NCBI GenBank assembly: GCA_015060905.1
Contig: SUXQ01000005.1
Location: forward strand, 73,670-137,669
Origin: Bacteroidales bacterium
Lineage (GTDB): Bacteria; Bacteroidota; Bacteroidia; Bacteroidales; Bacteroidaceae
DNA: 64,000 nucleotides
Direction of reading: 5' to 3'
A program made the position numbers and the translations under genes. How positions within the stretch are numbered: position 1 is the stretch's first letter; each line of letters starts with the position of its first letter. The notes under the pieces are model-generated. The model made no database searches, had not been told where the DNA came from, and was given only the letters and a program-made list of their open reading frames with translations. Below are positions 3,649 through 24,705 of this stretch, in pieces.

Positions 3649-3720
3649 CGCGGGGTGGAGCAGTGGTAGCTCGTTGGGCTCATAACCCAAAGGCCGGAGG
3701 TTCGATCCCTTCCCCCGCTA
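3649..3720 (+). tRNA. Initiator tRNA-Met (CAT anticodon)
   Basis: Full cloverleaf: 7-bp acceptor, D-stem GAGC/GCTC, anticodon stem TTGGG/CCCAA around loop CTCATAA, T-stem GGAGG/CCTTC with loop TTCGATC. Two initiator hallmarks are present: three consecutive G:C pairs at the base of the anticodon stem, and no Watson-Crick 1:72 pair (C1 opposes U72). The 3' CCA is not encoded. A strong hairpin terminator follows immediately. Confidence 0.93.
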
Positions 3721-3723
3721 CTA

Positions 3724-5362: not shown

Positions 5363-5872
5363 CTAAGGTTTCTTTTCTTCACAAACTTCGGAAACATTCT
5401 TATTAATCGCATCTTTATCAACCTTAGTTTCCCGTTTGCCGGGATTCATTAATTCGCCACGAATGAATATACGCACATAGGAACGAGGGTCATTAGTATA
5501 TACAGTAACAGACTTGCGGAAGTAGCCGAAAGGTTGTCCCTGCCCGCGGTAACCAACAGAAACAAATCCTGTGTCGCCCGGCATTATTGGCGTTACTGTA
5601 TGCGTAGGGCGGGTACATCCGCAACTACTTACGGCACGCAACACCACCAAAGGTTTCTGCCCGGTATTTTTAAAGCAGAAAGTATGCATCTTCAATGTAT
5701 CGTCCTCCACAGGTTCGAAACGGCCAAAATCATATTCCCGCTCGACAAACTCTATTCTCGGAACCTTAACAGATTGTTTTTTTAACGAATCGGGAATGTT
5801 AATTTTCACCCCTTGAGCAGCAGCGAGAAAAGCATATATATTTATCAACAGAAATATATAAAGTTTCTTCAT
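5363..5872 (-). CDS. DUF1573 exported protein
   Basis: 169 aa with an N-terminal signal peptide (hydrophobic to about residue 19, then AQG). The body is a DUF1573 domain, an immunoglobulin-like fold: EREYDFGRFEPVEDDTLKMH..., the SSCGCTRP turn, and a GYFRKSVTVYTND strand. DUF1573 proteins are abundant in Bacteroidota and probably act in the envelope; no activity is established. It starts 15 bp after the lipoprotein stop at 5888, so it is the last gene of the large exported-protein block. Confidence 0.88.
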   Translation of the reverse strand: MKKLYIFLLINIYAFLAAAQGVKINIPDSLKKQSVKVPRIEFVEREYDFGRFEPVEDDTLKMHTFCFKNTGQKPLVVLRAVSSCGCTRPTHTVTPIMPGDTGFVSVGYRGQGQPFGYFRKSVTVYTNDPRSYVRIFIRGELMNPGKRETKVDKDAINKNVSEVCEEKKP

Positions 5873-5887
5873 ACTATCTAAACTTCA

Positions 5888-8245
5888 CTAAAAATCAACA
5901 AACTCTGACTTTCCTACAACATAGGGGCCATCTTTACGCTCATAAGGATAATAGAAATTAATGTATTTTGATGCAGAAAAATATTTTTTATCGCCATCAT
6001 ATTTACAATAAGGTCGTGCTGTAATGCTCAATGCGTCAATTCCGGAATCGGGTTCTTTAGGCCTGTACTCCGAAATAAAGGTAGTGATAATTGTATATTT
6101 TCCGGCAGGACAAAGTCCGTCGAATGGAACCGGAAATTCGCGATTGAGAATAATTTTCCCATCGGGATTCTCCAATTTAAACTTAACACCCCACTCCTGA
6201 ATACGGGTAGAATTCTTAAGTTCCATTACCGTTGTAAAGCCGTATGATGTAAAATCTGTACGCTTTTTACCTTTAAAATACTCTTCGCCATACTCTTCAA
6301 GATAATATTGCCAATCCTCTTCAGAGAGTTCACGTCCGTACCATTGGTAACATTTTGGTTGAGTAATTTGGGGGACTCCCGGAGTAACTATCATCGAATT
6401 ATTACGATACTCGGTAATAAATCCTGAACTTGTGTCATAAATACAAGGAACAACCTCATAAACACCTACCGTCTCATCAATTCCTGCTTTTTTAAGATTG
6501 ACACTGAACTTATAAGTTTCATCAGCCTTCAACACATCATTCTTTATCTCTTGCTTAAATTTACCACTGCCACTCAACAACTCACCTTCATAGATACGCA
6601 GCGCAGGACGTTGGTTGGCAGCTAGAAATTTAGGAAAAAGAAAGAAATCCTCAAGTTTGCTAAAATTCAAAGAAGTATTTATATTCAATTCATTCCTTAT
6701 CCCGACAATTAGCCCGCCGGTAAGAGGGTCTATGATAGGATTACCATTCTCGTCTTCCATAATGTATTCAACTTCTTGAACCTCCAGCTTGGATTTTGTC
6801 TTGCTGTTATTTACCTTAGCCTTCAGATTATACATATTTGAAATTTCAGCCGTACCGAAATTGAAATCTCCCAAGCTGGCAGTCCAAGCACCTACCTTCA
6901 CAATACCCTCACCAAATCCGCTGAATGTAGCATAAGGTCCGGCATTGAAATTCTGACGATCAACAACCGCAAAGTCAGTAAGTGTTTCTGTTTCCAACGA
7001 AGCCTTAAAACCAACCTTACCCTCAATACCCAATACACCACCGACACCTCCGGCACTACCTCCGACCAACACTCCGACACCAACCCTTGCACGAAGCCAA
7101 ACATCGAAACTGCCACCGAAACTAACATTAGTAAACTTAAAAAAAGGCTCTTTTTGGGGATTACTAACAACCCTGTCAATTTCCTTCTTTTCCCCCTTTT
7201 CACAAATATACCCCACTCTACGTGTTTCGGAACGATATTTAGCCTCAAGATTGCCGTATCCCATCAGCGTGTAACCCGTTGAAACGTCAAAACGAAACAT
7301 TACACCAAACGGAAAAGAGGGAATACTAACCACAGGGTTAATAGCCTTCACAGAATGCCTCTCACGCATTGCGTGTTTGGCCTCATTTAAAGCAGCCTTC
7401 ATGCCCTTAATCTCATCCATATTCTTTGGAAAACCGGCCAATCCTTTTGCTGCCCCCTCGGGAGTGCCGCCATACCCAACAAGAATCTTAAAATTACGCT
7501 CGGTATAAGTATCGTTCCACTCCTCTTTATACTCATCGGCAAGATCCTCATACTGATGAACATTTACAACCTCCACCGATTGATAATTAATGTCAAAATA
7601 CAACTGTTTTCCATTTTTAAGATCGACAGCCTTGGCAAATTGGAAATTAGTGGTATCTGTTTTTACTCCATCCGACCTTGTACGGGTATCAGCGTCATAC
7701 AACGACATATCAACAAACACTGAGTCGTTCATCCAATATCCGCTACGTCCGATGGACACAGTTGCTCGCGTCTCAACACTATCAGTTTCAAAATCACTTT
7801 GTCCGGGAAGAATATACTCAAAGTCAAGGCGAATAACCAACGATTTAAAAACATCGCTCTTGTCGGCCGCTTCATGCTCCACGCGAATCATTCCATTCTC
7901 GCGAGTAACCGAGCGTACTTTAGAACAAAGACCAAGAGGGATATTCTGCGAACAGTTGGCCGCCATAAAATCACCTTCTTTAGGAATCCATTTGCGTGGC
8001 ATATTATCCATGAACCAGATAACCGAGTCGTTCATCATGGCAATATAGTTCTGTGGCTCACCATTAAGAGAAGTCACATTGTCATTATATTGATAGGTAA
8101 CGTCGCCATATGAGGTTACTTCGGTATAAGGCTCATCCTTGCCTTTCCTGTCTTCAGTAACGAGATATTCATCCATAGTCAGCGTGCAGGCAGCAACCAG
8201 CATCAACGATAGGATGGAAAGCGTATTTCGGATTATTTTTTTCAT
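5888..8245 (-). CDS. Large lipoprotein of unknown function (surface cluster, fifth gene)
   Basis: About 785 aa from the ATG at 8245. The start gives a lipoprotein signal peptide with lipobox LVAAC (lipidated Cys20) and acidic residues soon after it (MDEY), as in Bacteroidetes surface lipoproteins. A longer frame starting at 8293 overlaps the upstream stop as ATGA but places the signal peptide internally. The middle (about residues 380-480) is Gly-rich and strand-like (GVGVLVGGSAGGVGGVLG), resembling segments of the giant protein from the same block. The C-terminal third looks like beta-sandwich sequence. No family recognised. Confidence 0.8.
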   Translation of the reverse strand: MKKIIRNTLSILSLMLVAACTLTMDEYLVTEDRKGKDEPYTEVTSYGDVTYQYNDNVTSLNGEPQNYIAMMNDSVIWFMDNMPRKWIPKEGDFMAANCSQNIPLGLCSKVRSVTRENGMIRVEHEAADKSDVFKSLVIRLDFEYILPGQSDFETDSVETRATVSIGRSGYWMNDSVFVDMSLYDADTRTRSDGVKTDTTNFQFAKAVDLKNGKQLYFDINYQSVEVVNVHQYEDLADEYKEEWNDTYTERNFKILVGYGGTPEGAAKGLAGFPKNMDEIKGMKAALNEAKHAMRERHSVKAINPVVSIPSFPFGVMFRFDVSTGYTLMGYGNLEAKYRSETRRVGYICEKGEKKEIDRVVSNPQKEPFFKFTNVSFGGSFDVWLRARVGVGVLVGGSAGGVGGVLGIEGKVGFKASLETETLTDFAVVDRQNFNAGPYATFSGFGEGIVKVGAWTASLGDFNFGTAEISNMYNLKAKVNNSKTKSKLEVQEVEYIMEDENGNPIIDPLTGGLIVGIRNELNINTSLNFSKLEDFFLFPKFLAANQRPALRIYEGELLSGSGKFKQEIKNDVLKADETYKFSVNLKKAGIDETVGVYEVVPCIYDTSSGFITEYRNNSMIVTPGVPQITQPKCYQWYGRELSEEDWQYYLEEYGEEYFKGKKRTDFTSYGFTTVMELKNSTRIQEWGVKFKLENPDGKIILNREFPVPFDGLCPAGKYTIITTFISEYRPKEPDSGIDALSITARPYCKYDGDKKYFSASKYINFYYPYERKDGPYVVGKSEFVDF

Positions 8246-8289
8246 ATTGCTTCTAATTTTGGAGTTCTGATATTGCAACTTTCTGTTCG

Positions 8290-8988
8290 TCATTTAGAGC
8301 TTGTCAGTTCCAAAGGAGCCGAAGGACTACCATGAGTTTCACCATCAAAAAGAATATTCAGAGATAAATATTTCAGCATCATTTTCTCCCTATCATAGCA
8401 TACGAAACGTACAAGTTCAGGGCGGGTAGGTTCATCAGTTCCCCATTCAAAGTGTCCATAAATTCTGAATTGCAGAATCTTTTTATCATTCAACTCAATC
8501 AATTGTCCCAAGCCACGTAAATCAGAACCGACAAATGCCCCTATTATCTGATTTTCAAGGTCCAGCGGATTCCCATCAATAGAAGGCGTCACATAAGCCA
8601 CCATGTCATCCGAATAATCATGAATATTTATCACCCAGGGAGCCATCACATAAACCTGACAGAACGCCATCTTTTCATTCATTACAGAAATGGCACTGAC
8701 AACAGTTTCTCCCTCATTAGCCGCAACAATGGTGTTGTTATTGATATAAACCACCTCTTCGTTAGCAGAGCTAAAGAACACTTCGCGATTGGTTACCGAA
8801 TCGGGAGTAAACACTGGATGAAGAACAACAGAATCACCCTCTATCACGTATATTGTATCATAATCCAAACGCATATCATAAGCAATCTGTATATCATCAA
8901 TATCCATATCTATTAATCCACACGAGGTAAAGAGCGATGCCAATACCACAACGCATGAAAATATTGTTAAATGTCTAGGCTTATTCAT
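8290..8988 (-). CDS. Lipoprotein with Ig-like (BIG2-type) domain
   Basis: About 232 aa from the ATG at 8988. Signal peptide with lipobox FTSC (lipidated Cys23), followed by acidic IDMDIDD. Residues 40-110 look like a bacterial Ig-like group 2 domain: a DTIYVIEGDSVVLHPVFTPDS strand pair, then FFSSANEEVVYINNN and TIVAANEGETVVSAIS. The remaining 120 residues are not recognised. Its leader is similar in sequence to that of the next gene (see findings). It sits between the FnIII protein and the 785-aa lipoprotein. It is probably anchored in the outer membrane and may face outward; its partner is unknown. Confidence 0.82.
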   Translation of the reverse strand: MNKPRHLTIFSCVVVLASLFTSCGLIDMDIDDIQIAYDMRLDYDTIYVIEGDSVVLHPVFTPDSVTNREVFFSSANEEVVYINNNTIVAANEGETVVSAISVMNEKMAFCQVYVMAPWVINIHDYSDDMVAYVTPSIDGNPLDLENQIIGAFVGSDLRGLGQLIELNDKKILQFRIYGHFEWGTDEPTRPELVRFVCYDREKMMLKYLSLNILFDGETHGSPSAPLELTSSK

Positions 8989-9038
8989 TATAACTAAATT
9001 ATCTATTTTAGTTTCGCAATGCTCAACTTTGTAGTTCG

Positions 9039-11429
9039 TCACTTGTGGCCGGTACCTTCCTCTTTCTCCTTCGGCGCAGTTACAACTATTATGTTAGAGT
9101 CGGTAGTGGCTCGTCCATCCTTATACCTTATTCTTACAAAATATTCCGCCGATTCCCCGGGCGACAGCAGATAATCCTGAAACATTCGCTCATTAGCCTT
9201 GACAGACATCAAGAATTTATGGCGATTATCCCTTGCACCCTTGCGATAAACACAAAAATACCATTCACCTTTATATGGTAAATTGCCATCTGTTTCCCAA
9301 ACTATTTTAGTTTGTTTGTTTTTCACATCATAATTACCCATCAACTTTATGGGCCATTCAAAAACACGTTCACCCTCAAAACGCGTTGAGTATACAAGGC
9401 TCAACCCACTCGATATTCCGGCATATGAGAATGACTCCATCACATATTCATAACGATTGCGACGCACATACTCGGGTGCATCCATCACATCTACCACATT
9501 TCCGGTTGCGCGTAACGAATCGCCATTATAGACCCCGATGACAGTCCATTTCTTTGCATTGGCAAGTTTACGCATCAATACGTGGTGCGAAATTTGTTGC
9601 TCATTGCTACATATCCAACGCATACGTACACCCTTCACCTGATCGACCCACACAGAGTCAATGTGTGGCACTGCCGGCTGAATCATGCTCGGACGTATCA
9701 CCTGCAATGGAGCAGTATATGCACCCTCATTGGTTGCATAATCTACTGCACGAACCTTATAGTATATGTATTTCTGATTGACGTCTACAGCTAATGTATC
9801 CACGAAAGTTGTGTCGCGCAATAATGAGCCACCCGGTATTTTACGCAACATAAACTCGTGAGTAGTATCATTAGCAAAGGCCAATTCGTAATAATCAACA
9901 TCCATAGAGGGAGCAGTCCACGAAAGCCTTACAGTTCCCACCTTATTATCTATTATCTCGTAACGGAAATTCATAGGAGCATCGGGAGCCTTCAGGTCCG
10001 TTACACGCATGATGTGTGTCATTGAATAACTGACATTTTGCGCCGAGTCGTACGCCGCCACAGTAACCTGACTGCTGCTTATTTTGGAAACATCCACCGT
10101 CCACACTGTATCTTTCGCGGGTATTAACTCGGGGGTCAATTCTATCCATTCGGCCCTACGTTCATCTTGTGTACGACTGTAGTAAAGAATCTTATAACCT
10201 ATAAAGTCCGACTCAATAGTATCTTTATAGAAATGAAAGTCTGCAAAAACCTCTTTCGAAGGATCGTCAGGATTGCGACGGTCGATAACAATGTACTTCA
10301 ATTTGGGTGCGCGTGGAGCTTCAAGGTCGGGCATTGTAGCCACATGATAGTTTTTGGCTGCAATTAAGTCGCCAAAAGCATCGTAACCCGATATACGATA
10401 TTCATAAGTTCCCGGTGGCACATTGTCGTTGATAAAATTGTCCAACCCTTCATCGTTAATGTCGCGCATCATGATGAAAGGATTGTCATTCACCTTTGTC
10501 CATTCCCGCTCACCCATTGCACGGCGGTGTATATCAAACGAAGAGAAACGATTAGTCTGTTCCCACCAAATACGAAGCTGATTGATACCTACAACCGAGT
10601 CGCCCATCACCGCTTCGTAAGCCTCGGGAACATACTTTTTATTCTCTATTTCTTCAATATATCCCACGCGGAATTGCAAGTGTCCGGTAGAATCAAATTC
10701 AGAAGGACGCACAATATAACGGTATTTTTCACCCTTTTTGACATTCTTGTCCACAAAGCGCATGGCTAAATTCTCGGCCACGTCTCGTCGCCACTCACTC
10801 GTCAGCACAGCCATTCCGAAACGGAACTGCTGGTCACCATATACGTCGAGCAAGGCACCTAACTCTCCTGTGCCGTAGCGCGATTGCTCTTGTGAGAATC
10901 CACCCTCGCCATAAAGTGTACCCATAGCAATTACTGCTACCGAATCACTTTCCGGATACATATATCTCCATTGCTCTAATGTAGCAGGCTTCAATCGGTG
11001 TGCAATCGTATCGATACGGAATTGTACATTCTGCTTTTTGCTATCCATTATAGGCATACGATAGATATCAACACCCACAGCATTGAGATATTGCCAGCTC
11101 ACATAATCTTCGGGAGCCCATCGCAAAATAATACTGTCACCATATGTGCGGGCAAGAAGATGAATTTTACTCTGAAAATCACGCTGTACGGCACGTTTCT
11201 GCGAGAATTCTGCCGTATCGCGCACCTCACGAGGCAGATAGTTTCGAGTGCTACTTTTTTGCTTGACAGATACAGTATCTTCTTTTATTACCTCTATATC
11301 TTCGAGGTTAATAGTATCTGTTGCTGCAATCACCTGCTCTTCACCCGGAAACGCATACCTATGCGATGCCGCCGAAGCTCCTAAAAAGCCGGCAATAAAC
11401 AGGAATATTATATATTTACTGTTTTTCAT
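9039..11429 (-). CDS. Exported fibronectin type III-like multidomain protein
   Basis: 796 aa. Signal peptide of about 21 residues ending in GASAAS. The body contains repeated fibronectin III-like modules: YEYRISGYDAFGD near 345, a module with PDAPMNFRYEIIDNKVGTVRLSW and YYKVRAVDYATNEGAYT around 485-580, and another near 595-680 (RYEYVMESFSYAGISSG). It lacks a lipobox, a recognisable sorting domain, and catalytic motifs. Located 18 bp after the giant protein gene and ending inside the leader of the Ig-like lipoprotein gene, so it is part of the same transcript. Likely a structural or binding component at the cell surface. Confidence 0.82.
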   Translation of the reverse strand: MKNSKYIIFLFIAGFLGASAASHRYAFPGEEQVIAATDTINLEDIEVIKEDTVSVKQKSSTRNYLPREVRDTAEFSQKRAVQRDFQSKIHLLARTYGDSIILRWAPEDYVSWQYLNAVGVDIYRMPIMDSKKQNVQFRIDTIAHRLKPATLEQWRYMYPESDSVAVIAMGTLYGEGGFSQEQSRYGTGELGALLDVYGDQQFRFGMAVLTSEWRRDVAENLAMRFVDKNVKKGEKYRYIVRPSEFDSTGHLQFRVGYIEEIENKKYVPEAYEAVMGDSVVGINQLRIWWEQTNRFSSFDIHRRAMGEREWTKVNDNPFIMMRDINDEGLDNFINDNVPPGTYEYRISGYDAFGDLIAAKNYHVATMPDLEAPRAPKLKYIVIDRRNPDDPSKEVFADFHFYKDTIESDFIGYKILYYSRTQDERRAEWIELTPELIPAKDTVWTVDVSKISSSQVTVAAYDSAQNVSYSMTHIMRVTDLKAPDAPMNFRYEIIDNKVGTVRLSWTAPSMDVDYYELAFANDTTHEFMLRKIPGGSLLRDTTFVDTLAVDVNQKYIYYKVRAVDYATNEGAYTAPLQVIRPSMIQPAVPHIDSVWVDQVKGVRMRWICSNEQQISHHVLMRKLANAKKWTVIGVYNGDSLRATGNVVDVMDAPEYVRRNRYEYVMESFSYAGISSGLSLVYSTRFEGERVFEWPIKLMGNYDVKNKQTKIVWETDGNLPYKGEWYFCVYRKGARDNRHKFLMSVKANERMFQDYLLSPGESAEYFVRIRYKDGRATTDSNIIVVTAPKEKEEGTGHK

Positions 11430-11447
11430 ATATTTTCTCTTAATATC

Positions 11448-14400
11448 CTAATTATTCTTATATATGTAATAGTTCAAATTCCTCTTGTTGGTCAGTACAT
11501 CCGATGGATTGTTGATGGTATATGTGTATCTGGAATTACGCGGTCCCATATTCAAATACACACGATCGGAAACCGTATATTCAGCTTTTTTGAAATTATA
11601 GGCATTCACGCGGAACGAGGTAACATTTATTTGCGTAATATTGTCCCATCGTGGAATAAAATCAATATAGCCGCCACGAGTGCCATAAGTATAATTACCT
11701 TTACTATTCGTTCCGGTGATAACCTGATTATATTCAATATCTACAAGACGCGTGGGATAGTTTCCTACAAGTCCCAACAAAATATCTTCGCTTCGTTCCT
11801 CTTGCGGACGGCTCCAGCTTTTGGGCAGATCATCATAGCTCGACCACATGGTAGCTTGCTTGCGAGAACCCTTGTTATTGAATTGCGACCCCCAAAGAAT
11901 AGCTGCCTGATACCACGGCACCTCTATACGAATATTCGGATTTATTGAATGGGTCGCTTTAATATATACTCCCGTATAGTACTCCGACAAGAATTCTACA
12001 ATATCTGCAGCATTAGAACTGTAATCACCACGGCTGTAACTCATAAGGTTCTGCAATTCTTTGCGGAACTTGGAATCGAATTCGTCTACAACGCTATATA
12101 TTGCATATAGATCCTTTATAAGCCATTCTGCACGATACTTATCGTCTTTTCCATTCACCATTAACTCGTATGCACGCTCGCGACCACCGATGGCATAGTT
12201 GTATTTCGAATCGGTCATTACAGGCAGCGGATACAAGCAATCATTCTTCCACTGACCGGCATCATAAATAGATAGCGCTTTTACCTTGTTGTAGTCAGCG
12301 AGACTTCCGTAGTTGGACTTATATGCACCTTCATAAACTCCGCCACGATCGTGGTAGATAAGCGATTGAGCAGTTGTTGCATTAACTGCCAATCGTTTAT
12401 TGGACAGTGTCCAACCACCCACTAATCCGTAGTTACTCATATATGTAATATAGGTGTAAGGATCCTGGTAGCGCAAAGGATTAACTCCATCTTGTGCCAT
12501 ATATTTTCTATAGTAAGAGAGACCGCGAGCATTAACTTTGGGAGCAGTAGTCTTCATCTTTACACTATTCAAGCGTATGCCAACAAAAGGCCTCTCGTAT
12601 GTTGTCGGACGAGGCCCGATAGAGCTTTTGTAGCCCGAATGATAGTATCCGTCTTGTGCATATAGTTTCAAACTTGCAATGTTTGTAGTATCTGTAACAA
12701 TAACATTGGAAACCTTTTTCACATATCTCTTAAGTGTGTTGTCCCACACATAGTTTACACGTGTTTCGGTCCTTGACACCAGATAGTTTAGTTGCAAGCG
12801 ATAGTCAGCTTGATTATACACTTTTTTGTCAAATTGTCCACCTGACACAGTCAGATTACAAGTACTGTCGGATACTACCCAATAGGCATCTTTTTCATCC
12901 ACGAATCTCCAATCTCCGCTCATGTACTCTTCCAATTTCCAACGCAATTTACCCTTTTGGAATACCTGTTTGGAAATGTCAGAGAAGAACGCAATATTTG
13001 GCGCCTTAATGTCATGGGTGTAAGCAGTAACATAGCTGTCACACTTCAACTGATTGTAATTCGACGGATAAGCTATCGCCACATACTTTTGCAAGTCTTC
13101 GGGACAATCCTCAAGTCTCTCTGCCGGTCCTGTGCAGAAGAAATAGTCCTTAGTCTGTATCCATTGCACATTCTCGTATTTTTTCTTATTTTCGTTCCAT
13201 TTCAAAGGATCGACCTCTTGTCCGTTCTCTATCTCCTTGGCCCAACCTACGATACGCATACGGTAATACTTGTTCGGATTCAATTGCATCATATCTATTG
13301 GATGCTGGAAGCGGTTGGTACCTTTAATTTTGAATCCTATACATCTGTCATATTTATTTAGATTTTGGGAAGAGATACTATATTCATAAAGCAGCACTAC
13401 GGTGTTCATGTCAAAAACAAATGTGCGGCTTGCCTGAGCTTTCAGTTGTTCCTTTTCGCCATTAAAATCAGCCGCCAAACGATTAAGTTCTGTCTCGTCA
13501 AGCACACGGAAGTGTTCCTGTATAGGAGCTTCTGTATTTATGTAAGGCGGAATGTAGAACCTAGGATTGATGGCATTATCCTTATTCCAACCTTTCTCCT
13601 TAATAGTATCACCAATAGAGCAGTCACCAAATAGTTTGAAATTATCAAGAGCGTTACCATAGAATATGTCGCAACGGTCGCCACACTCAAACTCAAACTT
13701 ACGGTTAATCTTGACAAGGCCTGCCAACAAATTCAATTTCACGCGGGCTTCACCTGTAAAGTATGTAGGATTAGGAAGTCCCATCCGTAGTACACCACCA
13801 ATTCCGGCATCTATAATGTCAATCCTTTTATCCCAGAATCCAAGATTAATATATATACCAAATTTTGCATAAAGATACGCATACAACTGACCCTCTCCGT
13901 ACCAACCGTTGAAACCCGGGGTGCGTGGAAGGTTCATACATTGAATATTTCCTATATTACGAATGCTGACATCGAATCCGGCCAAAGCACCAAGGTTGCC
14001 ATAGAATAGCCCAAGATCAACATCAATATATCCCCACGCCGAAGCACCCATCATCACACCACCATAAACCTGCGCCTGGAAATCCTTGAGCGCAGAAGTA
14101 CGGGCGTTGTTAGCTTTTGAAATATCGGCACTTTCAACTCCGCTACCTTTGGTCGAGCCATCGAGGAACTGACGAATCTTGGCGGGTATTGGCGGCAATT
14201 CTCCATTATTGGGAAGTTCATTACCTACACATAAATAAGCATTGGCTCCGACGTTCACACTCACCACCTTTGACTTGAAATCAACCAACACAAACTTACA
14301 CCTTAAGTCTTCATCGGGCTGTCCCAAATAAAGGTGCCATTTTGCTTTGTCCAGTTTCTTTCCCTTTTCCTTCATGGTGATGCGGAAGTCGAGTGCAATA

Positions 14401-17400: not shown

Positions 17401-18845
17401 ACCTGTTCCCAACGAATGGTGTCTATCAAAGCTTCGGTACCCTTGACCAATTTAGTATAGATGGGCTCTGTTTCAAGTGCAGCTTTTTTGTCAATAGTAT
17501 TCTTGCCGTTGAACAACTGAACTTCATAATCAAACTTTAGCGTATCCGAATTTTGGCCCTGACCGCCCAAATGCCATACCTCGCGCCATGCAATAGCCAT
17601 GTCACTGCGCAAAAATTGCTTACGGGCGGCAATTTCGGCAAAAGTGGGAGTGGTAATCGTTGGATTGCGGAAGTTATACAACGCGCTCAGGTCGAGACTA
17701 TCGGTCATAGAATTCTTTCCCCACAGGGTCAAGAAGTCATCATCTTCTTCTTCATCATCATCGTCATCTTTATCGCCGCCTTTACCGCCACCATCGTCAC
17801 CTTTACCGCCGCCAACGTCGCCTTTATCGCCACCATCGTCACCTTTATCGCCACCATCGTCGCCTTTATCGCCACCATCGTCGCCACCATCGTCGCCTTT
17901 ATCGCCACCAATATCTGTCTTAAATTTGAAGGGGAGATATGTGCTCTTGCCATTATTTTCCAACATCACATATGATAGAGGTCCGCTAGCCTTGGAAGCT
18001 GCTGTTATTTGCGCCAAATAAGTTCTATCGGCGTAAAAGTTACCGGTAATTACCTGAGTCGGTATTACGCACATATTAGCCAAAAGTTCCTGCGCCTGAT
18101 AGATCACAGGATTGCGGTCCATAGCCACATCCGGTTGCTGCCCGGGCAATAGCTCCACCACTTTAAAATCGTAAGTATATCTTGCTGCAGCTCCACAAGC
18201 AATTACAGGCATTGTCCAAGTAAACTGAGCATTCAGCGGATCAACTTGTGCCACTGTTTCATCGCTCATCACATTTATCATAGGAGTAAGAAACTGAGGA
18301 GCTTGCGCTTTGTAGCACACCTGAAATGAACACCATCCGCCCTCGGGATTACTTACCACGACAGGCGTTGGAAGTTGCGGATTATTCCAACGATAAGCTG
18401 TTATTTTGCTTCGATAAGTTCCTTCGGGCAGCAATCCGAAAGAACCATTTTTATAATCATCGAAAAGATTGGCCGGGCATTGAATTTCACTCGCCGGAAT
18501 ATGATCGAAAAGTTTTTTCATCTCTACCGTATTGAGCGTATAAGCCGAACTTGGTTGAATAACAAAAGGAGCTTTCGGCTGTCGCTTAGCCGGAGTAGAG
18601 ATTGCAAGGTCGGACGAAGGGATTGTCTGCTCCAACTGAAGCCCTAAATAAACCTGTTGAACATCGGACGTGGTGTTAGTCAATGTAACAGTAAAATATT
18701 TTCCGGGATCGGACAAATACAACAACACTTGCGGTGGAAGTACCTGTTGAGTCGGAGTTATGGTCACGATTACCTCCTGAGCTAAGGCACAGAAGATACT
18801 GACTAACCACATTGTCAAAAAAGCTATTGACCTATATCTTTTCAT
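11448..18845 (-). CDS. Giant exported protein (about 2465 aa), TANFOR-like N-terminus
   Basis: The preferred start is the ATG at 18845 (signal peptide MKRYRSIAFLTMWLVSIFCALAQ); an ATG at 18857 adds 4 residues. Residues 25-190 resemble the N-terminal region of very large Bacteroidales proteins carrying the TANFOR domain (two-strand pattern, LPEGTYRSKITAYRW); I hold this from memory and it is not certain. A Gly/Asp/Lys repeat linker follows at about 308-375. Residues 400-1450 are strand-rich repeats, followed by a coiled-coil-like stretch near 1430-1470. A Gly-rich segment lies at about 1590-1690, and the last 650 residues are Tyr/Asn-rich. No catalytic motif, no clear C-terminal sorting domain. 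It follows the barrel gene by about 20 bp. Confidence 0.85.
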   Translation of the reverse strand: MKRYRSIAFLTMWLVSIFCALAQEVIVTITPTQQVLPPQVLLYLSDPGKYFTVTLTNTTSDVQQVYLGLQLEQTIPSSDLAISTPAKRQPKAPFVIQPSSAYTLNTVEMKKLFDHIPASEIQCPANLFDDYKNGSFGLLPEGTYRSKITAYRWNNPQLPTPVVVSNPEGGWCSFQVCYKAQAPQFLTPMINVMSDETVAQVDPLNAQFTWTMPVIACGAAARYTYDFKVVELLPGQQPDVAMDRNPVIYQAQELLANMCVIPTQVITGNFYADRTYLAQITAASKASGPLSYVMLENNGKSTYLPFKFKTDIGGDKGDDGGDDGGDKGDDGGDKGDDGGDKGDVGGGKGDDGGGKGGDKDDDDDEEEDDDFLTLWGKNSMTDSLDLSALYNFRNPTITTPTFAEIAARKQFLRSDMAIAWREVWHLGGQGQNSDTLKFDYEVQLFNGKNTIDKKAALETEPIYTKLVKGTEALIDTIRWEQVKDKVAEKDYLVLRVKPICTNFDSIVYHYDTLNVVDFALVESLTKKYFQCSNMVDIDNETPTTADADELLGKTIAIGEYQLTIDEIKSGKKADTWEGKGKVEWNPLGTKVMVCVKFEDLKINTDLVVFGGVAQSYSNDSKSNNDIVEGLFSDWGIDNLIADTGIPYANELQSAATDGVKSLAEKIDLSKYYEYVVLGQNVWNAIGSQDIDELYMPIALPKSITSESPVNVQVTTMKFAATHATMDLIGEFVLPDCDVLQDQILVFGAPRICISPDRILPESGTLALLSDLTLIDPESDFECTFKAPEDVINPVDGCYVSWHADKFELLGIDVDMEIPGLKKDVDGVAQDEAPKFNINTSIGDWDNWLVDNVSIDPFQAEDLPGWTFTAQNIVYDHSLYRNSANMGKFPDKYDKSRTLIAGQINTWQGLYIKEISVKMPKSLEFGSSGDKRLKIESKNMFFDDSGATLEIGAEDILSAKTGKAGGWAFSLDKVQASFIQNDFNNCGFSGKVEVPLLDGKLGYGCQIMKVNDLKNSVAGNYAYVFKVQQLNELKFDFMLAEAEFDEKLTYMLVEAVPEKTELKTRVELLMTGDLNIGGEAMKNKMKNLPLEFDLPGIHFSKMRLANCPVWESQFDDIKELQTAKDNTKTLITLYKGKEFNVKNQLYFSTGQWSLASMSKKLGPFELSIDKYNFDFKDEVLSTSVEGSIKLLEGLDISATTGITIKARLGGIAAVTKDFDFSKISFKYEGTQFDKAAFTSSFAGMSLNGELLASDDAKYGKGYKGSLDFTMPGDLFTASATGGYYKLDDYRWGYFLASLGSATGIQIPPVAITDITAGFYFNCIRKSATEVEPQKGIIGVVAGLGIASSAGKDVLGGNFEMTVVYDDDNKRLTTFMLTGNLKAVSGMINSQATIVYQEDNIDKYFALNITVDAKADGVGGISEKMTALSDELSDMQKTLNKDMKEVVNNATGGLMAAFDDQSKSKADSNSEAKVPEKPKVGEVSIALDFRITMKEKGKKLDKAKWHLYLGQPDEDLRCKFVLVDFKSKVVSVNVGANAYLCVGNELPNNGELPPIPAKIRQFLDGSTKGSGVESADISKANNARTSALKDFQAQVYGGVMMGASAWGYIDVDLGLFYGNLGALAGFDVSIRNIGNIQCMNLPRTPGFNGWYGEGQLYAYLYAKFGIYINLGFWDKRIDIIDAGIGGVLRMGLPNPTYFTGEARVKLNLLAGLVKINRKFEFECGDRCDIFYGNALDNFKLFGDCSIGDTIKEKGWNKDNAINPRFYIPPYINTEAPIQEHFRVLDETELNRLAADFNGEKEQLKAQASRTFVFDMNTVVLLYEYSISSQNLNKYDRCIGFKIKGTNRFQHPIDMMQLNPNKYYRMRIVGWAKEIENGQEVDPLKWNENKKKYENVQWIQTKDYFFCTGPAERLEDCPEDLQKYVAIAYPSNYNQLKCDSYVTAYTHDIKAPNIAFFSDISKQVFQKGKLRWKLEEYMSGDWRFVDEKDAYWVVSDSTCNLTVSGGQFDKKVYNQADYRLQLNYLVSRTETRVNYVWDNTLKRYVKKVSNVIVTDTTNIASLKLYAQDGYYHSGYKSSIGPRPTTYERPFVGIRLNSVKMKTTAPKVNARGLSYYRKYMAQDGVNPLRYQDPYTYITYMSNYGLVGGWTLSNKRLAVNATTAQSLIYHDRGGVYEGAYKSNYGSLADYNKVKALSIYDAGQWKNDCLYPLPVMTDSKYNYAIGGRERAYELMVNGKDDKYRAEWLIKDLYAIYSVVDEFDSKFRKELQNLMSYSRGDYSSNAADIVEFLSEYYTGVYIKATHSINPNIRIEVPWYQAAILWGSQFNNKGSRKQATMWSSYDDLPKSWSRPQEERSEDILLGLVGNYPTRLVDIEYNQVITGTNSKGNYTYGTRGGYIDFIPRWDNITQINVTSFRVNAYNFKKAEYTVSDRVYLNMGPRNSRYTYTINNPSDVLTNKRNLNYYIYKNN
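17738..17925 (-). repeat. In-frame tandem repeat coding the Gly/Asp/Lys linker of the giant protein
   Basis: A 21-bp unit (plus strand roughly TCGCCACCATCGTCGCCTTTA) recurs with slips and partial 9-bp copies. It codes for the heptad GGDKGDD and variants, and runs into an acidic run of Asp and Glu. All copies stay in frame. Such repeats are prone to length change by slippage; the acidic linker could bind Ca2+ or act as a flexible spacer. Confidence 0.85.
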
Positions 18846-18865
18846 ATCTGACTGCATTATTATTT

Positions 18866-20575
18866 TTACTCTTCACTTTTAACTTTGCGTTTGATGGCAA
18901 ACAAGTTGAATGTATAAATATAGTTGAGACTGGCCGTAATATCGGTACAGTCAAGTCCACTGCGAGTTTGAGTCATGTTTACATCCCCATATTTATTGAA
19001 TGCGGCACTTGCTGAAAACAGATGTGCCTTCTTAAGATTGAAACTTGCCGAAAAATCGGCTCCTATGGAGAGGCTTTTCGATTGTCGTTCCACCTCGTTG
19101 TAACAAAGCGAAACGGAGGCTGAAAGAGTTAAGTTTCTTTCTTTCAAAAAAGAGCGGCTTGTGCCAAGAGAGCCCACATCGCTTATATATTTGCTATTGA
19201 ATCCTTTGGATTCTTGGTGACTGTATGTTAGGGTAAAATCTGTTTCAATAGGCTTTACATCCATATTATAGGAAAGACCTAATGCCGTAGTTTTTATATC
19301 GCTCTCCCCGGTAGAGAATTTGTTGAGGTCTTTGTTGTTGGTAAGGTTAGCCGAAAGACTTATATTGTGCCCCAGAAGGTCTGTCTCGTGGAAGAAAGAG
19401 GGAGTGAGACTGTAACTTGACATCTGGCGATGAATACGTGTAGTATCATTAACCACACATGTACCGTCTCTTTGAGTCTGCAGATAGCCATTGTATCCTG
19501 CGGTAATACTGAAATTCTTGCTTATACGGGCTGTAGCATTGGCTGCATAGACGTAACCACAGGTTGTATAAAGTTGTTCTTTTGATAGATTATCAGCCTG
19601 CCCCGAAAAAGTTCCCGAAAATGATACCTTATTAAAGAGAGTGGTACCGAGAGTGATTCCCAGGCTGTGGTAGTTGTTTGACATGTAATATGTTCCGAGT
19701 GATGTATAGTCGGGCTGCACCATACGATAGCTGATAGAGGCATTCACACCCTTGATATTAATATTAGTGCTGAGGTCGCCGGCAAAGCGCATGAGAGAGC
19801 TGTATTTTACATCAAAGACTTTATCAAAGTCAGTCTTGACAGGAACATTGGGAGTGCGTATATCTGTATTGAAGATTGAAGTGGCGGCATTGGCGGTAAA
19901 CGACAACCAATTGAAGGGTGTTACACAACCTTTCACTCCCACCACAATATTCTCTTGTGGGGAAACTTGTTGTCGCCACAATTCATCAATAGAGTTTTCA
20001 CAATCGTAAGCACGAAGCAGATAAACATCAATATAATGCCTGCTTGAACCGTAACCGGCCTTGAATCCCCACCCCATACGCTTATATTGGGGAGTACGGG
20101 CAAAGGGATTTTCAGGATCGCTGTTTATGGCATTGCGCAAGCGTCCGTAAAAGATTCCTGCACGAAACTTGTCGTTTGTATATTCAAGGCCCACTCCATT
20201 GAATGACATATTCATCACATAGGAGCTCATAGCCATAGACGACTGTCCAAAATGACCTACCCAATTCTTGTAACTGGGATTAAGGTTGAAAGAAATTTGC
20301 GGATAATTAAAATCGAGATTATCGTTGCTGTAATACAATGTAAACGGCATATTGAACCCATACAAACTGATATTCAAGTTGGCGTACACCGTGTTGCTCA
20401 TGGGCGATCCATAGCCGTTACCGACCGATGAATAACGATAAGTATTCTGAGTCCCGATGGCTCCTGATATAATCAGAGGGTCACTTTTTGCTATTTCTGA
20501 AATGTTTTGCGCAAACATTGCATTGGATAGCAAAATAGAAACAATTAATGCTGTCAGCCTTATTTTAGGACTCAT
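18866..20575 (-). CDS. Outer-membrane beta-barrel protein of the surface cluster
   Basis: About 569 aa from the ATG at 20575; the frame also has an ATG at 20581. Signal peptide MSPKIRLTALIVSILLSNAMFAQ. The rest is dense amphipathic beta-strand sequence with aromatic girdles (FNMPFTLYYSNDNLDFNY, KISFSGTFSG-like, LSFTANAAT, FSITAGYNGYLQTQ) and ends in FNLFAIKRKVKSEE, so an outer-membrane barrel of many strands is very likely. No TonB plug or POTRA domain is visible. It directly precedes the giant protein gene. An anchor or transport channel for the giant protein is an attractive inference. Confidence 0.82.
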   Translation of the reverse strand: MSPKIRLTALIVSILLSNAMFAQNISEIAKSDPLIISGAIGTQNTYRYSSVGNGYGSPMSNTVYANLNISLYGFNMPFTLYYSNDNLDFNYPQISFNLNPSYKNWVGHFGQSSMAMSSYVMNMSFNGVGLEYTNDKFRAGIFYGRLRNAINSDPENPFARTPQYKRMGWGFKAGYGSSRHYIDVYLLRAYDCENSIDELWRQQVSPQENIVVGVKGCVTPFNWLSFTANAATSIFNTDIRTPNVPVKTDFDKVFDVKYSSLMRFAGDLSTNINIKGVNASISYRMVQPDYTSLGTYYMSNNYHSLGITLGTTLFNKVSFSGTFSGQADNLSKEQLYTTCGYVYAANATARISKNFSITAGYNGYLQTQRDGTCVVNDTTRIHRQMSSYSLTPSFFHETDLLGHNISLSANLTNNKDLNKFSTGESDIKTTALGLSYNMDVKPIETDFTLTYSHQESKGFNSKYISDVGSLGTSRSFLKERNLTLSASVSLCYNEVERQSKSLSIGADFSASFNLKKAHLFSASAAFNKYGDVNMTQTRSGLDCTDITASLNYIYTFNLFAIKRKVKSEE

Positions 20576-20596
20576 AAACATATTGCTTTAATGTTT

Positions 20597-20639
20597 AATT
20601 ATGTGTTGTGCAACCCATAAAGTTGCACAACACATAATT
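20597..20639 (-). other. Strong intercistronic hairpin ahead of the barrel gene
   Basis: An 18-bp perfect inverted repeat (left arm 20597-20614, right arm 20622-20639, loop of 7) lies between the sorting-domain protein gene and the barrel gene. No T-tract follows in the direction of transcription, so it is not a standard terminator. It may be an mRNA stabiliser or processing site that sets different levels of the flanking genes. Confidence 0.7.
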
Positions 20640-20651
20640 TAATCTAAAAGA

Positions 20652-23519
20652 CTATTTTTTGACAACTTTTCTTACTACGACCTTACCATTCTTAACGGTT
20701 TTTACAATGTAAACACCGCTGGGAATTTCACCTTCGACGATGCGACCGCTTAAGTCGTAATAAGTAGTTTCGTCGCTCTCTTCAATTTCTACGGTTGAAA
20801 TTGATGTCAGGCCGCCACCTTCGAATACAGCAGGAGCCTTCAATGAGCCGAGCTTTTGAGCATAATTTACTTTTGAATCAATATCAACATATTCGCCTGT
20901 ATACTCATTGTGCAGACGGAATGTAACTGTTTCTCCGGCTTTTCCGGCAACATTAATCATCATCTTGCCATCTTTAACCACTTTACCCATTCCGCGACAC
21001 TCATCATCAACAAATGCTCCGATTGTATAATCTTCGGGATTTTCAAGGCCGGCAATTTGCGCCACAATAGCCATATTGTCGGCAAATTGAGAAGCATCGT
21101 ATTTCCATACACTGTTTTTTGTTGATTTTGCTTTCTTCCTTGACAGGCTATATGCTTGATTGCTAAAGTCGGGAGTATAGTCAAATGAGAATGTAGTTTC
21201 GTAATCGGCTGTATTGTAGTAAAGATAACCTTTGCCTGCTTCAAGTATAAAATCAACACCGACCCATGCTCCGTCACTATATTCGGCAAAGCCTGTCTTT
21301 CCAATTATCTGGTCACCTTCACTTGGACCATTCATCACTGTATTAAGCTCTTCGAGAGTCATATCCCATTCGTTTGTATATCCTATCCATGTGTAGCCCG
21401 GTTGCAGCATCTTACTTTGATTACGTTCCCAAGATGGCTTTGCTGATGTAAATATGCAATTAGAGGCATCTTCGTAGGTTGCTTTAATCTTATACATGCC
21501 TTCGCCGGGATTAAGTAATTCAATGCCACCGAAAATTCCAAATGTGGGGTCGTTGTACAGAAGGGCTGTCTGTGAGCGTATCTCTATCACACGGTTATTT
21601 TCGTCAATATTCATTTGCTCGATATAATTGCCTTCATTATTCTTCAAATTAATGGTGGTAGGTGCATAAATCCAGTCCCAACCATTGTTGTTGAAGGAGA
21701 TTTCCGCAGGAGTTTCAATATAGCAAACTGCTTCGCCCTCGCGTGGCATATAAGCTCCATTGTAAAGTACTCGTAATTCGGCCGAGCCGGTGCCTGTTCC
21801 GCGAATATTCCAAATTTTTCCCTGTCCATCATCGGCAGATGTATAGGTTGGAACGCCGAAGCCTTCAGGCATATTGTTGCTCTTAAATTCAAGCTCAACA
21901 AGTGAGGGGTCGAAATTATCACCTGTCACTGTCAATTGAAACTCTGTATCTTTATATTTAGAGATGGTAAGTTCACCGGGGAATGTGATATTTACAGGTG
22001 TACTTACAATTACTGTTACTTCGACTGAAACATTGGGGTTTAGTACAGATGTAACCAATAATTTATATGTTCCGTTCTTAGTTGCATATTCATTAACGAT
22101 GGCGTCTGCTGTTGCGTCGTCGGCAGGAGTTATTGTATAGCTTTCGCCCTCGTCATTTTCGGGTCTGATTATTATTTGTGGACGAAGAACATCATAAGCA
22201 TTTGTGTTAATTTCTACTTCTATAGATTCGGGAGCGATAAGTTCGGTAATAACAACTGTCACTTCGCTTTTAATTTCGGGATTGTCGTCCGAGACAACAT
22301 AAATTGTATATTTACCGGCTATACATGCTACATTCTCAACAATGGCGTCAGATGCCTCGTTTGGTATTTCAAGGTGGAAGCCCTTGTCGGTAGCATCATC
22401 GGGACCAACTACTACGTAGGGAGTTATAATGTCCAGAATATTGTCTTCAATTGCAGCATGGAATGTTTGTTGGGATACTCTTAAATATTCAACCGGTGCA
22501 TTAACCTCTACCGTAATTGTAGTGTAAATTTCAGGATCATACTCCGATACAATTTTCACATCATAGACGCCACCTTTTAATGCAACACCTCCTTTAAAAG
22601 CATCTGTATCTTCGGGATTAGCCGGTTCGAAAGTGTAATTTTTATTTGAAGCATCGGCAGGCTCAATTGTTATTGCATTATTGAGTTCTTCAATGTCATA
22701 AAGGCTTTCATTTTTATTTATTTTCACAGTACTCATTGAGCATTTGATACCTGTTACAGGGGTCACCTCTTCGTCAATAATAATTACTGTGTTTCCCGAA
22801 CATAATGAGGCATAATCGGTAACGCCGATTGTCAGCATAGCCTCTTCACCTGTATTCTCGACCGAGCCGGGTAGCAAAGTTGTTTGTGTCGCCGTCAGGA
22901 TGTTGTTATTATCAATGGTAAATGCATTAAATGCACCGTTTGGGGTCACCGCTGTCCATGTATAGTTCAACGTTGTTTCTATCGTAGACTCACCTAATGG
23001 TTCATATTCAATGGGAGCACCGGTATCGTCCATTCCTTCATAAGTAAATTCAATTTCGTCGCTCAAATCTTTCTCACAGGGAAATTTGGCGACGATATTA
23101 ATTGGATTTGTGATTTCAACCCCTGTAGGTTTGTCTATGTTCAACACAAAAGGAACTTCGCTTACAGTTTCACCTGTAAATGTAGTTTGTTTCGTGCAAG
23201 CAAAGACAATGCCGGAGTTACGATCAAACACCTTAAATGAAATTTGTTTTTTATTCACTTCATCGGTATTACCCCACACACGCAACGTATACAAATTGCC
23301 CGCGTTTGTGTTAATGGTAGCTTCAGTTGCAGCTCCGCGGCATACACCATCAATAAACGCAGCAACTTCAACGGCAGTCGATGCTGACCCATTGATTTTG
23401 ACCTGTACATACACCGGAGTCGATGTTTGATATTCACTCTCCGATGGCGCAGTCCAATGTTGCGCTTGCATTGTCAATGACGACAATAAGACAAGCATTA
23501 AAAATAAAATTTTTCTCAT
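20652..23519 (-). CDS. Secreted Ig-like repeat protein with C-terminal sorting-domain-like end
   Basis: 955 aa. Signal peptide of about 19 residues (…SSLTMQAQ). From about residue 130 there are repeated Ig-like/cadherin-like units with the recurring pattern 'I-D-I-I-x-P-x-V/I-x-P-x-D-A-x-x-K-x-Y/F-x-I/F-E-P' (around 260-345, 345-430 and 430-500). The last 70 residues (YYDLSGRIVEGEIPSGVYIVKTVKNGKVVVRKVV region) match the type A C-terminal signal of type IX secretion cargo: LSGR, GVYIV, then basic strand to the end. So it is likely secreted by type IX or an equivalent route. The T9SS machinery is not in the window. Confidence 0.85.
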   Translation of the reverse strand: MRKILFLMLVLLSSLTMQAQHWTAPSESEYQTSTPVYVQVKINGSASTAVEVAAFIDGVCRGAATEATINTNAGNLYTLRVWGNTDEVNKKQISFKVFDRNSGIVFACTKQTTFTGETVSEVPFVLNIDKPTGVEITNPINIVAKFPCEKDLSDEIEFTYEGMDDTGAPIEYEPLGESTIETTLNYTWTAVTPNGAFNAFTIDNNNILTATQTTLLPGSVENTGEEAMLTIGVTDYASLCSGNTVIIIDEEVTPVTGIKCSMSTVKINKNESLYDIEELNNAITIEPADASNKNYTFEPANPEDTDAFKGGVALKGGVYDVKIVSEYDPEIYTTITVEVNAPVEYLRVSQQTFHAAIEDNILDIITPYVVVGPDDATDKGFHLEIPNEASDAIVENVACIAGKYTIYVVSDDNPEIKSEVTVVITELIAPESIEVEINTNAYDVLRPQIIIRPENDEGESYTITPADDATADAIVNEYATKNGTYKLLVTSVLNPNVSVEVTVIVSTPVNITFPGELTISKYKDTEFQLTVTGDNFDPSLVELEFKSNNMPEGFGVPTYTSADDGQGKIWNIRGTGTGSAELRVLYNGAYMPREGEAVCYIETPAEISFNNNGWDWIYAPTTINLKNNEGNYIEQMNIDENNRVIEIRSQTALLYNDPTFGIFGGIELLNPGEGMYKIKATYEDASNCIFTSAKPSWERNQSKMLQPGYTWIGYTNEWDMTLEELNTVMNGPSEGDQIIGKTGFAEYSDGAWVGVDFILEAGKGYLYYNTADYETTFSFDYTPDFSNQAYSLSRKKAKSTKNSVWKYDASQFADNMAIVAQIAGLENPEDYTIGAFVDDECRGMGKVVKDGKMMINVAGKAGETVTFRLHNEYTGEYVDIDSKVNYAQKLGSLKAPAVFEGGGLTSISTVEIEESDETTYYDLSGRIVEGEIPSGVYIVKTVKNGKVVVRKVVKK

Positions 23520-23610: not shown

Positions 23611-23618
23611 CAAATGTA
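23611..23618 (-). promoter_or_regulatory. -7 box for the sorting-domain protein / surface cluster
   Basis: TACATTTG on the minus strand, about 90 bp upstream of the start at 23519, in an AT-rich region. A TTG lies about 22 bp further upstream and could be the -33 element. The 23520-23952 intergenic region holds only this promoter, the leader hairpin, AT-rich sequence and the divergent promoter of the DUF2147 gene. Confidence 0.6.
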
Positions 23619-24477: not shown

Positions 24478-24705
24478 TTTATCTTCTTTTTTAGTACCAA
24501 CATCACCACCACTCTCGCGCCAAGAATGTGGAACAACTACGGGTGGGTGTGTCGGAACAAAGACATCCACACTATCTACCTGTGGCTGTTTGTTACTCTC
24601 CTTTTTCATCTTTCTGCTTGTTGCACACGAACAAAAATATGCCAGCGATAGCAGTATTACTGCTATCGCCAACATATCGCGTGCTATTTGTCGTTTATTT
24701 TGCAT
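24454..24705 (-). CDS. Small lipoprotein with PTHPPV-SWR tail
   Basis: 83 aa. Hydrophobic N-terminus ending in YFCSC, where Cys27 (or Cys25) could be lipidated, followed by a Lys-rich stretch. Residues 51-64 read PTHPPVVVPHSWRE, nearly the same as the C-terminus of the adjacent M64 protein (PTHPPVIVNKSWRD). Its ATG overlaps the last 11 bp of that gene, so translation is probably coupled. The frame ends within the terminator hairpin. No family recognised. The shared tail is the best sign that it is a real gene and not a chance frame. Confidence 0.6.
   Translation of the reverse strand: MQNKRQIARDMLAIAVILLSLAYFCSCATSRKMKKESNKQPQVDSVDVFVPTHPPVVVPHSWRESGGDVGTKKEDKVKNRLRY

What the first reader, a model, noticed from the sequence alone, without database searches (positions are those of the whole stretch)
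5363..23519. A seven-gene exported-protein block with no known function
Seven consecutive same-strand genes encode a sorting-domain protein, an outer-membrane barrel, a giant protein of about 2465 aa, an FnIII protein, an Ig-like lipoprotein, a large lipoprotein and a DUF1573 protein, all exported. Gaps are short or overlapping. This looks like one surface apparatus: a barrel that anchors or exports a very large protein, with lipoprotein partners. No regulator, glycosidase or SusC/D gene is present, so it is not a standard polysaccharide locus.
Basis: partly seen in the sequence, partly recalled or inferred. Interest (0 to 1): 0.8.

Follow-up and report, generated by a model that had tools for sequence, protein, structure and literature searches.

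The report
Giant surface protein with partner barrel
Seven neighbouring genes of a Bacteroidota bacterium encode a giant exported protein, an outer-membrane barrel and helper proteins; relatives of the barrel and giant sit side by side across the phylum, sometimes with antibacterial toxins, which points to an undescribed way of displaying or releasing giant proteins.

Summary
In detail: seven same-strand genes from 23519 down to 5363, with gaps of +70, +8, +18, -4, -4 and +15 nt. The same order recurs in dozens of related genomes. 'No known function' needs correcting. The giant's first ~320 residues are a remote TANFOR domain, the N-terminal domain of a published class of Bacteroidetes polymorphic toxins (PMC7073777). 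The curated TANFOR model misses it; a profile of the window and 43 near giants links them. The new part is the barrel, which no domain model names. Of 40 barrel loci fetched across the phylum, 32 carry a TANFOR and/or giant-core gene and 22 the Fn3 gene; the nearest of each kind is always on the barrel's strand. One protein fuses TANFOR to the barrel. Some relatives end in nuclease toxins beside immunity genes; the window's giant shows no toxin domain. Best reading: the barrel is the giant's own outer-membrane partner, docking through TANFOR and working with type IX secretion. Anchoring versus export is not shown; two near-complete genomes have the barrel without detected SprA.

The parts
20652..23519 (-). 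955-aa exported protein with a weak type A sorting-like tail
   Evidence: TIGR04183 under cut-off; homologue upstream of the barrel in 47 of 47 near loci
18866..20581 (-). 571-aa outer-membrane barrel, about 24 strands in the model; no named family
   Evidence: in 42 of 296 phylum genomes
11448..18857 (-). 2469-aa giant
   Evidence: relatives
17898..18857 (-). giant residues 1-320: signal sequence and remote TANFOR domain
   Evidence: profile of window plus 43 near giants matches all 11 TIGR02542 loci at E 2.6e-19 to 3.2e-5; alignment A3
13593..17174 (-). giant residues 562-1755: conserved 'core', long beta strands in the model
   Evidence: alignment A2, model mean pLDDT 74.5, pTM 0.43; in 34 of 296 phylum genomes
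11451..12860 (-). giant residues 2000-2469: C-terminal region, less conserved, no match to a solved structure by sequence
9039..11429 (-). 796-aa Fn3-like exported protein
   Evidence: homologue in 22 of 40 distant barrel loci
8290..9042 (-). Ig-like lipoprotein (250-aa ORF, likely start at codon 19)
   Evidence: Big_2 22.3 bits, cut-off 22.8; 19 of 20 downstream regions
5888..8293 (-). large lipoprotein (801-aa ORF, likely start at codon 17)
   Evidence: homologue in 37 of 44 near genomes
5363..5872 (-). DUF1573 exported protein
   Evidence: PF07610; 12 of 20 downstream regions
23611..23618 (-). TACATTTG, candidate -7 element of the operon promoter, read by eye against a recalled Bacteroides consensus
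   Evidence: the full two-box pattern does not match here

Best explanation
The block is one operon for a TANFOR-class surface system. Its products cross the inner membrane by Sec (inferred from signal sequences). The barrel inserts in the outer membrane. The giant's N-terminal TANFOR domain docks on this barrel, its dedicated outer-membrane partner. Most likely the barrel works with the type IX translocon present in the cell, collecting and holding the giant at the surface much as PorP/SprF-type barrels do for their own cargo. The giant's core forms a long beta structure outside, to which the Fn3 protein and the two lipoproteins attach. In other lineages the same barrel, TANFOR, core and Fn3 set goes with nuclease toxins and immunity genes; here neither is recognised, so the giant more likely carries a binding or structural domain. 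Shown: gene conservation, co-inheritance, one barrel-TANFOR fusion, toxin and immunity genes in some relatives. Inferred: docking, anchoring, surface location and every step of export.
For: Conserved order among close relatives. TANFOR and/or core in 32, Fn3 in 22, any of the three in 35 of 40 distant barrel loci, the nearest partner of each kind always on the barrel's strand; a TANFOR or core gene starts within 400 nt downstream of the barrel in 24 of 40 (the script's 26 also counts the fusion L118 and the upstream neighbour L121). Starting from TANFOR, 7 of 8 genomes have the barrel against 42 of 296 overall. Barrel and core share 25 genomes, 4.8 expected. Fused TANFOR-barrel protein in L118. 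Barrel and TANFOR distances correlate at r 0.849 over 44 near loci. SprA in the own genome and in 41 of 41 other barrel genomes of the phylum sample. Precedent: PorP/SprF barrels with cognate type B cargo (PMC9143113 abstract; PMC12618676 passages).
Against: No binding, localisation or expression data. 5 of 40 distant barrels have none of the partners within the fetched stretch (L089, L092, L109, L123, L127), nor has L162 in the own family. In L094 and L119 the giant beside the barrel has core but no TANFOR match, so TANFOR cannot be the only contact. SprA is in 229 of 296 genomes and 136 of 140 genera, so its presence says little; in the own family 26 of 29 barrel genomes have it against 207 of 272 others, p 0.11, and G346 and G348 (99 and 100% complete) lack a match. 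The giant has no type A or B CTD match. Nearest relatives of barrel and TANFOR agree in only 25 of 44 loci.
Confidence: 0.5

Rival explanations
1. The barrel itself is the exporter: a two-partner-secretion-like pair in which an usher-sized barrel passes the giant, recognised by its N-terminal TANFOR domain, without the type IX translocon.
For: Gene order barrel, TANFOR toxin, immunity gene in Emticicia recalls cdiB-cdiA-cdiI (recalled). Large barrel, ushers among Foldseek hits. N-terminal shared domain with variable C-termini. No SprA match in G346, G348 and G593.
Against: No POTRA or TPS-type domain match. SprA present in all 42 barrel genomes of the phylum sample. Absence of SprA in metagenome assemblies may be an assembly or binning gap.
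Confidence: 0.25
2. The window's giant is itself an antibacterial toxin with an unrecognised C-terminal toxin domain.
For: TANFOR class (PMC7073777); WHH and AHH nuclease ends in two relatives.
Against: No toxin match in the giant; no immunity-like gene next to it; the C-terminal region aligns past residue 2370 in 22 of 43 near giants, at low identity, rather than being swapped; no toxin match in C-terminal parts of 10 near giants.
Confidence: 0.12
3. A glycan or nutrient capture locus of an unusual kind.
For: Lipoproteins with Ig-like and Fn3-like parts are common in such loci (general knowledge).
Against: No TonB-dependent receptor, SusD, enzyme or regulator match among the seven; the partner set goes with TANFOR toxins elsewhere.
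Confidence: 0.05
4. The seven genes are neighbours without a common function.
For: DUF1573 follows in only 12 of 20 regions; the sorting protein was not found beside distant barrels by this profile search set (one search did not test it; one search did, none listed).
Against: Conserved order and strand in near loci.
Confidence: 0.03

Closest known systems
TANFOR polymorphic toxins (TIGR02542; Jana, Salomon and Bosis 2020, PMC7073777)
   Same: N-terminal TANFOR domain on a very large exported protein, neighbours with Fn3 and type IX sorting domains
   Different: Too remote for the curated model; no toxin or immunity recognised here; large core domain and a dedicated barrel, which that paper does not mention (the word 'barrel' does not occur in its text)
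PorP/SprF barrels with type B CTD cargo (PMC9143113, PMC12618676)
   Same: Outer-membrane barrel encoded beside a giant cargo in Bacteroidota
   Different: No PorP/SprF family match; the window barrel is 571 aa with about 24 modelled strands; gene upstream of the giant, not downstream; the giant lacks a CTD match
Two-partner secretion / CDI (CdiB-CdiA-CdiI; recalled)
   Same: Barrel gene directly before a giant with a conserved N-terminal domain; toxin end plus immunity gene in some relatives
   Different: No POTRA, TPS or haemagglutinin-repeat match
Chaperone-usher barrels
   Same: Similar modelled size; among the Foldseek hits; 1 of 25 members has a weak usher match, E 1.2e-4
   Different: No chaperone or pilin match among the seven proteins; structural similarity may only reflect barrel size

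Membership tests
TANFOR proteins | TIGR02542 match | tested here: not met
   none in own genome at E up to 10; none for the window domain, 5 of 22 members of A3 match
TANFOR proteins | N-terminal domain homologous to TANFOR by profile | tested here: met
   11 of 11 TIGR02542 loci matched by a profile of near giants
TANFOR proteins | C-terminal toxin domain | tested here: not met
   no toxin match in the giant
TANFOR proteins | adjacent immunity gene | tested here: not met
   next genes are Fn3-like, Ig-like lipoprotein, large lipoprotein, DUF1573; no immunity match
PorP/SprF barrels | family model match | tested here: not met
   no such match for the barrel or any of 25 members
Type IX secretion substrates | C-terminal sorting domain on the giant | tested here: not met
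   no NCBIfam match in the giant at E up to 1
Type IX secretion substrates | C-terminal sorting domain on the 955-aa protein | tested here: inconclusive
   16.6 and 18.0 bits, cut-off 23
Type IX secretion substrates | translocon SprA in the genome | tested here: met
   2679 bits
Two-partner secretion | POTRA domains on the barrel and TPS domain on the cargo | tested here: not met
   no Pfam match in either
SusC/D polysaccharide utilisation locus | SusC/D pair | tested here: not met
   no match among the seven proteins
any surface display system | surface location of the giant | not testable with these tools
   needs an experiment

The most novel reading that the evidence does not exclude
The barrel and the TANFOR domain form an undescribed outer-membrane export route of Bacteroidota, a two-partner-like pathway that releases or displays giant proteins and, in some lineages, antibacterial nucleases, independently of the type IX translocon.
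Probability: 0.25. Interest if true: 0.88.

Novelty: new variant of a known kind. Interest (0 to 1): 0.62.

Why it matters
TANFOR toxins were proposed in 2020 to leave by type IX secretion, with the route left open (PMC7073777). A barrel gene beside them across the phylum, fused to TANFOR in one genome, is a concrete candidate partner that a single gene deletion can test. It also gives a homology-based reading to a giant-gene block, found in many ruminant-gut Bacteroidales assemblies, whose proteins match almost no family model.

Tried and rejected
Pfam and NCBIfam on the seven proteins gave almost nothing. Sequence searches of the PDB with core, barrel, giant C-terminus, TANFOR alignment and large lipoprotein gave no usable match (TANFOR reached only E 0.08 with animal Fn3/Ig-type chains). 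Foldseek with the core model gave LptD, SlpA and ApoB-type long-strand matches with TM about 0.1, so I draw no fold conclusion. I considered that the large lipoprotein shares a module with the core; profile comparison did not support it (probability 0.4). A shared repeat in the sorting protein and the Ig-like lipoprotein is only weakly supported pairwise (E 4e-4); the strong profile result aligns mostly signal-peptide regions of a mixed set and is not used. Pfam on C-terminal parts of 10 near giants found no toxin. The C-terminal extensions of three distant barrels have no Pfam match. SprA presence is a weak test of type IX dependence because nearly all genera have it. Sigma-70 and terminator scans were at or below chance. 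The pattern scan used a promoter consensus from recall.

Full report
What is there. Seven minus-strand genes run from 23519 to 5363: a 955-aa protein with a sorting-like tail, a 571-aa barrel, a 2469-aa giant, a 796-aa Fn3-like protein, a 250-aa Ig-like lipoprotein, an 801-aa lipoprotein and a 169-aa DUF1573 protein. Gaps are +70, +8, +18, -4, -4 and +15 nt. A TACATTTG element, read by eye, lies upstream of the first gene, without a full two-box match. A TTTG-N20-TANNTTTG match (consensus recalled) lies below the last gene at 5302-5271, and one inside the giant at 15359-15329; the window has 9 such matches, 2.4 expected. The next gene down has a Nitro_FeMo-Co domain, a different class. This suggests one operon but does not prove it.

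Conservation among close relatives. A genome-collection scan with the barrel alone returned 47 loci, most titled as ruminant-gut Bacteroidaceae, Bacteroidales or Prevotella assemblies. The sorting protein lies upstream on the same strand in 47 of 47; a giant follows in 45, the other two contigs ending in the barrel. Three loci (L030, L040, L041) have short giants (500, 494 and 990 aa) and no separate Fn3 gene in the fetched stretch. The large lipoprotein has a homologue in 37 of 44 of these genomes; the seven without include those of the three short-giant loci. In 20 downstream regions, chosen by that lipoprotein match, giant, Fn3 and large lipoprotein follow in 20 of 20, the Ig-like lipoprotein between them in 19, and DUF1573 next in 12. 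In the own family 29 of 301 genomes carry the barrel. Twelve of 15 have the sorting protein upstream; L162 shows no TANFOR, core or Fn3 partner. Five same-genus regions have giants of 4667-4901 aa (L158-L161, L167). So the block is conserved but patchy.

The giant is of the TANFOR class. TIGR02542 finds nothing in the own genome or for the window domain. In 296 Bacteroidota genomes it gave 11 places in 8 genomes, none over cut-off. A profile of the N-termini of the window and 43 near giants matched all 11 at E from 2.6e-19 to 3.2e-5, computed on that small set. With 20 distant stretches added, the profile finds the domain in 27 of 40 distant barrel loci and in the Emticicia, Runella and Persicobacter records. 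Alignment A3 shows the shared pattern; distant members are 18-24% identical to the window domain. The class was described by Jana, Salomon and Bosis (PMC7073777; I saw the outline, part 1 of 6 of the text, section 9 and search passages): N-terminal TANFOR, variable C-terminal toxins, neighbourhoods rich in SprB, Fn3, PKD and type IX sorting domains, and a hypothesis of type IX export.

The barrel is the new partner. The window protein has no Pfam or NCBIfam match; among 25 members only scattered weak matches appear. The model has mean pLDDT 72.3, pTM 0.60 and 25 listed strands, about 24 in the barrel. Foldseek finds MtrB, S-layer barrel, usher, SprA and LptD chains, that is, large barrels in general. 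27 of 44 barrel ORFs end in F, W or Y, and several others end the barrel domain in such a strand before an extension. In the phylum sample 42 of 296 genomes carry it. Around 40 such barrels iterated profiles found TANFOR in 27, core in 15, either in 32, Fn3 in 22 and any of the three in 35; the nearest partner of each kind is never on the other strand. Five loci show none (L089, L092, L109, L123, L127); L109 has an unmatched 3034-aa giant beside the barrel. Starting from TANFOR instead, 7 of 8 genomes have the barrel (p 5e-6), and in five of the eight a barrel lies within about 11 kb on the same strand (G198, G202, G249, G285, G289; places). Barrel and core share 25 genomes against 4.8 expected. 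Genomes are related, so these p-values overstate independence.

Fusions and splits. In L118 one 947-aa frame carries TANFOR (19-250) and the barrel (361-924), with two further TANFOR proteins beside it. TANFOR and core are one protein in the window lineage and in L091, L095, L096, L108, L110 and L128, and separate genes of one cluster in L099, L100, L103, L120 and L150. L094 and L119 have barrel and core without a TANFOR match. Across 44 near loci barrel and TANFOR distances correlate at 0.849; barrel against sorting-protein tail gives 0.662 (45 loci) and against Fn3 0.754 (30 loci); the nearest relative agrees in 25 of 44, 26 of 45 and 11 of 30. Two pairs of paralogous loci keep overlapping sets of nearest relatives. 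Linked inheritance alone would give such correlations; the fusion is the stronger hint of contact.

Toxins in relatives, none seen here. Emticicia oligotrophica plasmid pEMTOL03 reads SprB-repeat protein, barrel, 2719-aa TANFOR protein with a WHH nuclease end, SUKH protein. L120 carries a 2198-aa TANFOR protein with an AHH nuclease end and an Imm11-like neighbour, the latter under cut-off. L102 has a TNT match under cut-off; the other eight distant ends scanned gave no toxin match. The window giant has no toxin match, and residues 2000-2469 match no PDB sequence. That region aligns past residue 2370 in 22 of 43 near giants, at low identity, unlike a swapped toxin tip.

How it may work. Sec export, barrel insertion and docking of TANFOR on the barrel are inferred. 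Anchor or shuttle for type IX secretion, or independent exporter, is open. SprA is present in the own genome and in 41 of 41 other barrel genomes of the phylum sample, but overall in 229 of 296 genomes and 136 of 140 genera. In the own family 26 of 29 barrel genomes have it against 207 of 272 others (p 0.11); G346, G348 and G593 (99, 100 and 77% complete) do not appear among the matches. The precedent for cognate barrel-cargo pairs is PorP/SprF with type B CTD proteins (PMC9143113, abstract and outline; PMC12618676, passages), but membership fails here.

Print record. In the held library the whole word TANFOR occurs in three papers, one irrelevant; the main one has no occurrence of 'barrel'; PMC11796102 lists TANFOR as a trafficking marker (passages). 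A search for papers with three of the terms two-partner secretion, Bacteroidota, polymorphic toxin, outer membrane barrel found none. Most subscription papers and all bioRxiv preprints are outside that library, so an earlier report of the barrel cannot be excluded.

Noticed in passing
window 24695-28486 (-): 1263-aa lipoprotein with DUF4988, BACON, BspA-type leucine-rich repeats and an M64 (IgA peptidase) domain, same strand, about 1.2 kb upstream of the block.
   Followed up: partly
window 3649-3721 (+): tRNA-Met gene about 1.6 kb beyond the 3' end of the block; whether it marks an insertion site was not tested.
   Followed up: no
L030, L040, L041: Short giants (500, 494, 990 aa) that keep the TANFOR end and are followed by the Ig-like lipoprotein, without a separate Fn3 gene; no large lipoprotein in those genomes.
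   Followed up: partly
L092, L097-L099, L101-L103, L105: Distant barrels with a C-terminal extension of about 160-260 residues after the barrel domain; the three scanned have no Pfam match.
   Followed up: partly
L151 (Bergeyella porcorum plasmid pQD2021): Barrel, Fn3, SprB, PKD and deaminase-annotated pieces of a similar locus, spread over many short frames.
   Followed up: no
G346, G348: Genomes listed as 99 and 100% complete with barrel loci (three in G348) but no SprA match.
   Followed up: partly
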